Both the position numbers and the translations under genes were made by a program. Shown piece after piece: positions 1,151 through 3,104 of a stretch of 64,000 nucleotides of DNA. Each line of letters starts with the position of its first letter. The stretch's first letter is position 1. The notes under the pieces were generated by a model, which made no database searches, was not told the origin of the DNA, and saw nothing but the letters and a program-made list of their open reading frames with translations. The stretch spans positions 129,971 to 193,970 of the forward strand of contig NZ_BBPQ01000005.1 of the NCBI RefSeq assembly GCF_000787855.1. The letters run 5' to 3'. The stretch comes from Streptacidiphilus anmyonensis (GTDB lineage Bacteria > Actinomycetota > Actinomycetes > Streptomycetales > Streptomycetaceae).

Positions 1151-2386
1151 CTACCACATGACCGGGAGCCGCTCCGGCAGCCGCTTCATGTAGCCGGTGC
1201 GCCAGACGAGTTGCTCGATCGGCACGGCCAGCTCCAGCTCCGGCACGCGGTCGAGGAGCGTGGTGACGGCGATCTCCGCGTGCCTGCGGCCCAGGGCCGT
1301 GGCCGGGCAGTAGTGCTGGCCGCCGCCGAAGGAGAGGTGGGCGGAGCTGTTGGTCCGGGCGAGGTCGATCGCGAGCGGGTCGGGGAAGGCGTCCGGGTCG
1401 TGGTTGGCGCCCTCGACCAGGACCAGCACCAGCTCGCCCGCGCGCACCAGGACGTCACCCAACTGGACGTCCTCCAGGGCGAGTCGTGGGAGTCCGTCGC
1501 CGATGGAGAGGTTGACCCGCAGCAGCTCCTCCACCGCCGCGGGGACGAGCTCCGGCTCGGCCCGCAGTCGGGCGCGCAGCTCCGGGTGCTGGAGCAGCGT
1601 CACGAACGCCATGGTGAGGAACCCGGCCGTGGAGACGACGCCCGCGCCGAACATGGTGACCCCCACGGTCGCCAGCATCTCGTCGGTCAGGTGGTCGTAG
1701 TCCCCGTCCAGCCGCAGCGCGGCCAGCTCCGCCATCAACCCGGTGGTGGCCGGGTCGTCCAGACGCTCCGTCATATAGGCGATGTCGCGGTCCCAGTTGA
1801 GCTTGGCGCCGGCGATCGGGCAGGCGGAGTTCATGAACGCGATGTCCAGGCTGGCCGAGAGCTTCGGCGCGTCCGCGAGCGGGATGCCGAGGATGCGGCA
1901 GTGCATCGCCTCCGAATACGGGTTGGCGAAGCCGTGCCGCAGGTCGGCGGGCGCACCGGCGGCGATCAGGCCGTCGACGAGCGAGGCGGCCTGCTCCCGC
2001 ATCCACGCCTCAAGGCCCGGGGCCTTGGGGTTGATCGCCTTCAGCACGGCCTTGCGCAGCCCCGCACCGGTGATGTTCCCCATGTTGTTGACGACCTCGG
2101 GCGGGATCGTCAGCGCGTACTGGCGCGGCACGCCCGGCGCGGAGGTGTCCTTCAGGCTGAACCGGCGGTCCTCCAGGACCTGCTTGCACAGCGCGTGCGA
2201 GGAGACCAGCCAGGCCGGGTCGCCCGCGATGGTGCGCACCCGCTTGACGGGCTCCGCACGCAGCTCCTCGACCTCGTCCGGCAGGCGGTCGCCGCGCCAG
2301 GAGAAGGGGAACGCGGGAAGGTCGGCGAGCGCGGTCGGCGTCGTCTCGAGCGGCGTCTTCTCAAGCGGCATCGTCTCAAGCGGCAT
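1151..2386 (-). CDS. CYP121-like cytochrome P450, probable cyclodipeptide oxidase
   Basis: A 411-residue heme monooxygenase encoded directly after a cyclodipeptide synthase, so its likely substrate is a cyclodipeptide. From memory of Mycobacterium CYP121A1 (the cyclo-Tyr-Tyr C-C coupling enzyme) the two align almost without gaps, including TIPPEVVNNMGN, IAFM, NWDRD, FGAGVVST and the C-terminal PERLPVMW. The heme Cys is residue 360 in FGGGQHYCPA, exactly 51 residues from the C terminus as in CYP121. The usual I-helix acid-alcohol pair is replaced by AGVVST, keeping the serine equivalent to CYP121 S237. The substrate-contacting Q385-R386 pair is Met400-Lys401 here, and C+2 is Ala rather than Gly. 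The start ATG overlaps the CDPS stop by 11 nt, with GAAGGGGGA inside the CDPS end as ribosome site. No ferredoxin gene is visible nearby. Confidence 0.9.
   Translation of the reverse strand: MPLETMPLEKTPLETTPTALADLPAFPFSWRGDRLPDEVEELRAEPVKRVRTIAGDPAWLVSSHALCKQVLEDRRFSLKDTSAPGVPRQYALTIPPEVVNNMGNITGAGLRKAVLKAINPKAPGLEAWMREQAASLVDGLIAAGAPADLRHGFANPYSEAMHCRILGIPLADAPKLSASLDIAFMNSACPIAGAKLNWDRDIAYMTERLDDPATTGLMAELAALRLDGDYDHLTDEMLATVGVTMFGAGVVSTAGFLTMAFVTLLQHPELRARLRAEPELVPAAVEELLRVNLSIGDGLPRLALEDVQLGDVLVRAGELVLVLVEGANHDPDAFPDPLAIDLARTNSSAHLSFGGGQHYCPATALGRRHAEIAVTTLLDRVPELELAVPIEQLVWRTGYMKRLPERLPVMW
2342..2386 (-). repeat. 15-bp tandem repeat at the P450 N terminus
   Basis: Three 15-bp units encode MPLET-MPLEK-TPLET at the extreme N terminus of the P450. 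The first two units each carry an in-frame ATG (2386 and 2371), so repeat expansion has duplicated the start codon. The segment precedes the conserved fold and is probably disordered. Confidence 0.75.
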
Positions 2387-3104
2387 TCCGGTGTCCCCCT
2401 TCGGCGGCCGGCGTGACGATCGCGTGGCCCTGGTTGCGTGAGGCGCGCAGGCCGGAGCCGCGCGAGTACAGCAGCTCCGCGAGCGGGAGCAGCTGGTGGT
2501 AGCAGTTGAGCGAGGACGGGACGTCGAGGATGGCCGGGCTGTCCAGGAACAGCGGCGCCTCCGCGCAGATGTAGCGCAGGCACACCTCCCGCTGCTCCGC
2601 CGTGGCCTGGCGTCCGTCGGCCAGCACCTTCGAGGCGAGATAGGCCCCGACGAGCTCGTCGATCACGGCGCGGAACTCGGCGTCGGAGTCCAGCCGCTGC
2701 CGCAGCTCGTCATGGAGGAGCCGGTAGGCGCCGTTGCGCTGGAAGTCGGACATCGCGTGGGCCCTGATCCGGCCCTGCCCGTCGTCGGTCTCCTCGACGG
2801 CGGCGCGCACCTTGGCCCGCACGCCGCGCAGGTTCTTCACGGCCTTGCGCCGGGCGTCGTCCGCGCCGTATCCGAGCGCCTCGTACATCTCCGCGACGTA
2901 GAGGTCGGTGTAGACGAGGTCGACCTGCCGGAAGTGCGCGAGGCCCCAGTGGGCGAGGTCCAGCAGACGCTGCTGGGAGAAGTAGCTGTTTCCGGGCGAC
3001 ACCCCGACCACCGCGTGGTCGCCCTCGGCCTGGATCAGGGCGCAGTGCGCCGTATAAGGCCTGACATGGAATAAGGTCTCGGTCGCTGTCTGCAAGATCT
3101 GCAA
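2376..3104 (-). CDS. Cyclodipeptide synthase (CDPS), NYH subfamily
   Basis: This 242-residue tRNA-dependent enzyme joins two aminoacyl-tRNAs into a cyclodipeptide using a covalent seryl intermediate. It resembles AlbC of Streptomyces noursei. The nucleophile motif GVSPGNSYFS places Ser36 (AlbC S37) and Asn39 (N40). Tyr178, Glu182, Tyr202 and His203 carry the same numbers as in AlbC, and N40/Y202/H203 define the NYH subfamily. A basic helix near 84-100 (RRKAVKNLRGVRAK) fits the tRNA-binding patch. Residue 200 is Asn, which I recall as the Tyr-pocket Asn251 of Rv2275 (AlbC has Leu), so Tyr is a plausible first substrate. The start is TTG at 3104, chosen because it gives the family N-terminal length; its ribosome site is weak. 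The gene overlaps the P450 start, indicating translational coupling. Confidence 0.93.
   Translation of the reverse strand: MQILQTATETLFHVRPYTAHCALIQAEGDHAVVGVSPGNSYFSQQRLLDLAHWGLAHFRQVDLVYTDLYVAEMYEALGYGADDARRKAVKNLRGVRAKVRAAVEETDDGQGRIRAHAMSDFQRNGAYRLLHDELRQRLDSDAEFRAVIDELVGAYLASKVLADGRQATAEQREVCLRYICAEAPLFLDSPAILDVPSSLNCYHQLLPLAELLYSRGSGLRASRNQGHAIVTPAAEGGHRNAA

What the first reader, a model, noticed from the sequence alone, without database searches (positions are those of the whole stretch)
1151..3104. CDPS coupled to a CYP121-like P450 outside Mycobacterium, with substrate contacts changed
The synthase has every NYH catalytic residue (S36, N39, Y178, E182, Y202, H203) and an Asn at 200 that I recall as the Tyr-pocket Asn251 of Rv2275, pointing to cyclo(Tyr-Tyr). 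The P450 aligns with CYP121A1 almost end to end, including the odd I-helix AGVVST and C-terminal PERLPVMW, but the key contact pair Gln385-Arg386 is Met-Lys here and Cys+2 is Ala. Streptomyces P450s acting on cyclo(Tyr-Tyr) (mycocyclosin/guatyromycine type) are known, so the family is not new. The altered contacts may mean a different coupling partner or a different dipeptide.
Basis: partly seen in the sequence, partly recalled or inferred. Interest (0 to 1): 0.75.

Follow-up and report, generated by a model that had tools for sequence, protein, structure and literature searches.

The report
Ordinary gymAB-type cyclodityrosine gene pair
These two overlapping genes, from what is likely a Streptacidiphilus soil bacterium, are predicted to make a ring of two tyrosines and then bridge it or join it to a guanine or hypoxanthine base; many other actinomycetes carry the same gene pair, so the find is ordinary, and the residues thought to be altered are the usual ones in its relatives outside Mycobacterium.

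Summary
The genes are real and correctly placed: a CDPS (3104-2376, minus strand) overlapping a P450 (2386-1151) by 11 bases. The CDPS passes the NCBIfam cyclodityrosine synthase cut-off (411 vs 300 bits), is 95% identical to that of Streptacidiphilus melanogenes and has the same pocket motifs; a CDPS of that species made mainly cyclo(Tyr-Tyr) in E. coli (PMC5816076). By sequence the P450 is closest to GymB1 (77%) and GymB5 (69%), then CYP121A1 (64%). GymB5 was crystallised with cYY plus hypoxanthine; gym pairs make mycocyclosin and guatyromycines (PMC10092475). The "changed" contacts, Met-Lys and Cys+2 Ala, occur in 249 of 262 aligned rows, GymB1 and GymB5 included. Gln-Arg occurs only in 5 rows 87-100% identical to CYP121A1; in the tree the CYP121A1 clade nests among Nocardia Met-Lys rows, so the change most likely happened on the mycobacterial branch, not here. 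All 80 genome loci read have a CDPS directly before the P450. Verdict: new member of a known kind, likely making cYY, mycocyclosin and nucleobase adducts. By-product: mycobacterial CYP121 looks like a remodelled descendant of a GymB-like enzyme.

The parts
2376..3104 (-). CDPS of the NYH subfamily, predicted cyclo(L-Tyr-L-Tyr) synthase (GymA type), TTG start
   Evidence: PF16715 287 bits; NCBIfam NF052540 cyclodityrosine synthase 411 bits vs cut-off 300; 63% to the Rv2275 segment, 95% to S. melanogenes L004; pockets VGVTMLFN / LAYSQLP
1151..2386 (-). Cytochrome P450 of the CYP121/GymB type, predicted bifunctional: intramolecular C-C bond (mycocyclosin) and nucleobase coupling
   Evidence: 77% to GymB1 (8q6z), 69% to GymB5 (8q6x), 64% to CYP121A1; 48 of 50 pocket/heme positions equal GymB1, 46 of 50 equal GymB5, 38 of 50 equal CYP121A1; predicted model matches 8q6z first, TMq 0.91
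3105..3262 (.). Divergent intergenic region, likely promoter and 5' leader of the CDPS-P450 pair: TTGACA box, inverted repeat GGAGC..GCTCC, AAGGA before the TTG start
   Evidence: These elements are conserved in 4 Streptacidiphilus relatives, L003-L006; function inferred
3263..4030 (+). GntR/UTRA family regulator, divergent neighbour; possible regulator of the pair
   Evidence: PF00392 + PF07702; neighbour found in only 4 of 80 loci, L003-L006; regulatory link inferred

Best explanation
[quoted passage not shown] Shown here: the two overlapping genes, their sequence identity, the catalytic and pocket residues, and the wide conservation of the pair. Inferred from characterised relatives: the substrates and products (with cyclo(Tyr-Ala) and cyclo(Tyr-Phe) as likely side products) and the radical coupling chemistry. 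Met400-Lys401 is the normal GymB state and not a change in this lineage.
For: By sequence the nearest solved relatives are GymB1 and GymB5. PDB title 8q6y: GymB5 with cYY and hypoxanthine. Met-Lys in 249 of 262 aligned rows, with Ala at Cys+2 in all 249 of those. Only 2 of 50 pocket/heme positions differ from GymB1 and 4 of 50 from GymB5. CDPS above the cyclodityrosine synthase cut-off. Pocket motifs identical to one of the four cYY (NYH) rows in Table 2 of PMC5816076 and to S. melanogenes L004, 95% identical. Table 1 of that paper: S. melanogenes CDPS 95 gives cYY 59.6%, cYA 22.2%, cYF 16.3% (passage). A CDPS directly before the P450 in 80 of 80 genome loci. Review passage: six gym pairs expressed in S. 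albus gave mycocyclosin and guatyromycines A and B (PMC10092475).
Against: No product was measured. The window enzyme is not known to be one of the tested GymB enzymes, and the ratio of mycocyclosin to nucleobase adducts could differ. In the structure search a CYP121 chain (2ij5_D) ranks second, between GymB1 and GymB5, and GymB5's place in the tree is unresolved. The primary gym paper (anie.202200377) is not held, so its residue-level claims were not seen. Position 342 (Gln here; Ala in GymB1, Ser in GymB5) varies within the family.
Confidence: 0.87

Rival explanations
1. The P450 is a plain mycocyclosin synthase like CYP121A1, doing only the intramolecular C-C bond and no nucleobase transfer.
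For: 64% identity to CYP121A1; Asn85, Ser237, Phe338, His343 and Pro346 equivalents kept; a CYP121 chain ranks second in the structure search.
Against: 12 of 50 pocket/heme positions differ from CYP121A1; all 12 carry the GymB1 residue and 11 the GymB5 residue. GymB1 and GymB5 are closer in identity. Gym pairs make both kinds of product (PMC10092475).
Confidence: 0.08
2. The Met-Lys pair marks a new substrate or partner specific to this lineage.
For: Gln385 and Arg386 lie within 5 A of many ligands listed for CYP121A1 structures (PMC11084333, passages), so a change there could matter.
Against: Met-Lys is shared by all 120 nearest homologues and by GymB5, crystallised with cYY and hypoxanthine; Lys is also kept in PtmB and 9o4d; the CDPS pockets are those of cYY synthases.
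Confidence: 0.02
3. The main cyclodipeptide supplied is not cyclo(Tyr-Tyr) but another Tyr dipeptide such as cyclo(Tyr-Ala) or cyclo(Tyr-Phe), so the main P450 product differs.
For: S. melanogenes CDPS 95 makes 22.2% cYA and 16.3% cYF in E. coli (PMC5816076).
Against: cYY was the main product (59.6%) of that enzyme, from the species whose CDPS is 95% identical to the window's; the P1/P2 motifs match a cYY row.
Confidence: 0.03

Closest known systems
gym gene pairs of Streptomyces (GymB1 of S. flavidovirens, PDB 8q6z; GymB5 of S. katrae, PDB 8q6x/8q6y)
   Same: CDPS-P450 two-gene unit; Met-Lys and Cys+2 Ala; 77% and 69% P450 identity; 48 and 46 of 50 pocket/heme positions
   Different: Other genus (likely Streptacidiphilus); a divergent GntR gene found only in its closest kin; products untested
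CDPS 95 of Streptacidiphilus melanogenes (PMC5816076) and the S. melanogenes NBRC 103184 locus L004
   Same: L004: CDPS 95% and P450 93% identical, same pocket motifs, GntR neighbour
   Different: That CDPS 95 is the L004 gene is inferred from species and motif; its accession was not seen
Rv2275-CYP121A1 of Mycobacterium tuberculosis (mycocyclosin)
   Same: CDPS 63% and P450 64% identical; two-gene unit (PMC7954767, passage); core catalytic residues kept
   Different: 12 of 50 pocket/heme positions, among them Gln385-Arg386, Phe280, Asn74 and Gly347
PtmB / GutD guanitrypmycin P450s (cyclo(Trp-Trp) plus nucleobase; PDB 8yy7, 8yza)
   Same: Same wider P450 family, Lys at the 386 position, CDPS partner
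   Different: 57-60% identity; Ile at 385; the three I-K loci L093-L095 pair with CDPSs whose P1 pockets are of the Trp type, LGVALFFA/S

Membership tests
gym (GymA-GymB) pair | cYY-type NYH CDPS gene directly followed by a CYP121-like P450 gene | tested here: met
   11-base overlap in the window; same order in 80 of 80 loci
gym (GymA-GymB) pair | P450 groups with GymB1 and apart from mycobacterial CYP121 | tested here: met
   Window and GymB1 fall in one 16-row group (90/85) and its 15-row core (100/98), without any of the 4 mycobacterial-type rows
gym (GymA-GymB) pair | P450 groups with GymB5 | tested here: inconclusive
   GymB5 sits on a long, unresolved branch at the base of the 40-row family; its pocket agrees at 46 of 50 positions
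gym (GymA-GymB) pair | Makes mycocyclosin and guanine/hypoxanthine adducts of cYY | not testable with these tools
   Needs expression and LC-MS
NYH cYY-synthase group (Rv2275 group) | Ser37, Asn40, Tyr178, Glu182, Tyr202, His203 (AlbC numbering) | tested here: met
NYH cYY-synthase group (Rv2275 group) | P1 VG(V/I)TMLFN and P2 Lx(F/Y)xQLP | tested here: met
   VGVTMLFN / LAYSQLP against Table 2 of PMC5816076
Mycobacterial CYP121 (mycocyclosin synthase) | Gln385-Arg386, Phe280, Gly347 pocket states | tested here: not met
   Met, Lys, Ile, Ala
PtmB/GutD cyclo(Trp-Trp) nucleobase P450s | Partner CDPS with a Trp-type P1 pocket | tested here: not met
   Partner has the Tyr-type P1 pocket

The most novel reading that the evidence does not exclude
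CYP121 of mycobacteria is a descendant, through a Nocardia-like branch, of a GymB-type enzyme that also coupled cyclo(Tyr-Tyr) to nucleobases; a burst of pocket changes on the mycobacterial branch (Met-Lys to Gln-Arg, Ile to Phe280, Tyr to Asn74, Ala to Gly347) narrowed it to mycocyclosin alone. The window enzyme then shows the ancestral pocket.
Probability: 0.35. Interest if true: 0.5.

Novelty: new member of a known kind. Interest (0 to 1): 0.17.

Why it matters
In itself little: it adds one more likely gymAB pair, and one whose CDPS is 95% identical to that of a species with a tested synthase. The comparison is useful in another way. It corrects the direction of the residue change: the contact pair discussed for the drug target CYP121A1 is the exception in this family, so Streptomyces and Nocardia relatives are good references for which pocket residues go with nucleobase coupling.

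Tried and rejected
Rejected: a lineage-specific change of substrate contacts; a non-CYP121 cyclodipeptide P450 (NascB, NzeB, AspB and TtpB1 score 167-177 bits against 675 for GymB1); a non-tyrosine CDPS. No tRNA, and no Rfam match at the gathering threshold, in the window. A wider cluster: three neighbours were tested (GntR, AMP-ligase, glyoxalase-like); GntR and the ligase recur in L003-L006 and the glyoxalase-like gene in L004-L006, in none of the other loci. Structure prediction (mean pLDDT 79.5, residues 95-106 below 50) was used only to find and name solved relatives, not to argue about contacts. Term searches in PMC5767969 found nothing.

Limits: one search lists the best 120 of 647, another the best 120 of 279, another the best 120 of 627, and keeps the best 80 of 176 loci, so the far edge of the family is thinly sampled. 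The 262 rows are not independent: L083 is the window itself and several P and L rows are the same gene. Of the 13 rows without Met-Lys, P0244, P0245 and P0258 are truncated or odd copies of the CYP121A1 sequence. In L029 only 181 residues of the CDPS align, so that gene may be broken. The 50 positions were taken from the tables of PMC11084333 as shown, cut off.

Full report
Observation. The window's minus strand carries a 242-codon CDPS gene (3104-2376, TTG start) and a 411-codon P450 gene (2386-1151, ATG start) whose ends overlap by 11 bases. The match to CYP121A1 is far beyond chance: 558 bits, 63.9% identity over 388 columns. The only slip is the I-helix motif, AGVVST here but AGVIST in CYP121A1.

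The synthase. It matches PF16715 (287 bits) and passes the NCBIfam equivalog for cyclodityrosine synthase (411 bits against a cut-off of 300). Among solved structures it is closest to 2x9q (304 bits; recalled as Rv2275, the listing says only cyclodipeptide synthetase), then AlbC, 147 bits. Mapped on AlbC numbering, pocket P1 reads VGVTMLFN and P2 LAYSQLP. Which AlbC positions line the pockets is recalled from Jacques et al. 2015. The paper I read names only three of them: 65 and 200 agree with my set, but its text gives 119 for the fourth P1 residue, where my set has 67 fourth and 119 fifth. Even so the extraction returned, letter for letter, one of the four motif pairs it prints for NYH cYY synthases (PMC5816076, section 11 read in full). 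The same P1 form, VG(V/I)TMLFN, is in 81 of 90 CDPSs of the loci (L093-L095 set aside). In its Table 1, CDPS 95 of Streptacidiphilus melanogenes made cYY 59.6%, cYA 22.2% and cYF 16.3% in E. coli (passage). The S. melanogenes locus L004 encodes a CDPS 95% identical to the window's with the same two motifs; that it is CDPS 95 is inferred.

The P450. By sequence its best solved relatives are GymB1 (675 bits, 77%) and the chain 8q6x (580 bits, 69%), ahead of CYP121A1. A predicted model served to retrieve titles: 8q6z is GymB1 of Streptomyces flavidovirens, 8q6x is GymB5 of Streptomyces katrae, and 8q6y is GymB5 in complex with cYY and hypoxanthine; in that ranking by fold a CYP121 chain (2ij5_D) comes second, between GymB1 and GymB5. 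GymB1 and GymB5 both carry the Met-Lys pair and the Ala two after the Cys. Of 50 pocket and heme positions the window differs from GymB1 at 2, from GymB5 at 4 and from CYP121A1 at 12.

Who has which state. All 120 nearest homologues carry Met-Lys. In a wider set of 262 rows (window, 3 PDB chains, 163 database proteins, 95 loci) 249 carry Met-Lys. Gln-Arg is in 5 rows, 87-100% identical to CYP121A1 (the M. tuberculosis chain itself and four unnamed sequences). Ala-Arg is in 1 (P0243, Mycobacterium ostraviense); Thr-Arg and Ser-Arg are in 1 each, odd copies of the CYP121A1 sequence; Ile-Lys is in 3; two distant rows have Gln-Val and Met-Ala. PtmB and the structure 9o4d also have Ile-Lys. All 9 Nocardia rows tabulated have Met-Lys.

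Direction of change. In a 45-row tree the 4 mycobacterial-type rows (CYP121A1, P0242, P0243, L091) form one clade (100/100) inside an 11-row group with Nocardia (98/89), itself inside a 14-row group (100/95), with the Ile-Lys rows outside the 40-row family (100/100). The least-change reading is that Lys386 is old and that Arg386, with Phe280, Asn74, Val78, Leu73 and Gly347 (4 of 4 rows) and Gln385 (3 of 4), arose on the mycobacterial branch. The fork joining that clade to its two nearest Nocardia rows is weaker (87/83), and the two outermost rows are long branches. GymB5's place is unresolved.

Spread of the pair. A scan of genome contigs found 176 stretches encoding a relative; the best 80 were kept, and 80 of 80 have a CDPS directly 5' of the P450, though in L029 only 181 residues of it align. 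In an even draw of 394 genomes of the class, the window's own included, 15 have a match at E <= 1e-80: 9 Met-Lys (the window's own among them), 1 Gln-Arg, 3 Ile-Lys and 2 distant. The divergent GntR gene was found in only 4 of the 80 loci (L003-L006), all Streptacidiphilus; three other Streptacidiphilus loci lack it.

What is known. A review (PMC10092475, passages seen) reports a widely distributed gym locus in Streptomyces with CDPS and P450 genes; six such pairs expressed in S. albus gave mycocyclosin, guatyromycine A with guanine on the phenolic hydroxyl and guatyromycine B with hypoxanthine at its ortho position, and the P450s act both as intramolecular oxidases and nucleobase transferases. 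A second review (PMC7954767, passages) describes CYP121 and the cyclo(Trp-Trp) nucleobase P450s. The primary paper (Angew. Chem. 2022, e202200377) is not held and was seen only as a reference. The J. Nat. Prod. paper PMC13122648 (passages) ties PtmB and GutD24283 to guanine and hypoxanthine coupling of cyclo(Trp-Trp).

How it works. Most likely the CDPS makes cyclo(Tyr-Tyr) and the P450 turns it into mycocyclosin and guatyromycine-type adducts. Gene identity and residues are shown; substrates, products and mechanism are carried over from close characterised relatives. The regulatory role of the GntR gene and of the conserved leader is a guess.

Verdict. The useful by-product is that the contact residues of CYP121A1 are the exception in this family.

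Noticed in passing
L098:7640-10838 (own genome G000:C146:67639-70837), with a P450 at L098:6060-7604: A second CDPS in the same genome (NYH, pockets VGVPMFFN / MEVARLP, not among the motif rows of Table 2 in PMC5816076) sits between an AMP-binding enzyme gene and a DUF3050 gene, with a convergent P450. The AMP-ligase/CDPS pairing recurs in 3 of 5 other genomes matched (L100-L102; ligase 71-77% identical); the DUF3050 domain was not found in the 1.5 kb or so held downstream in those. No listed paper holds both DUF3050 and cyclodipeptide synthase (best 12 of 232, ranked by number of terms held). Product unknown; perhaps the better lead of the two.
   Followed up: partly
window 3085-3262: The leader of the CDPS gene is strongly conserved between the window and four Streptacidiphilus genomes: TTGACA box, a GGAGC/GCTCC inverted repeat, AAGGA, and a TTG start within a doubled CTTGCAGA (second copy one base off in L003). 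A leader structure or operator is possible.
   Followed up: no
The CDPS of L094 is the same gene that one search matched as L104.
   Followed up: partly
L096 (G121:C15:4845-6047): A CYP121-like P450 (43% to the window) with Gln-Val at the 385/386 positions and no CDPS like the window's in the 1.5 kb flanks held; the same genome has a CDPS like the second one of the window's genome elsewhere (L101).
   Followed up: no
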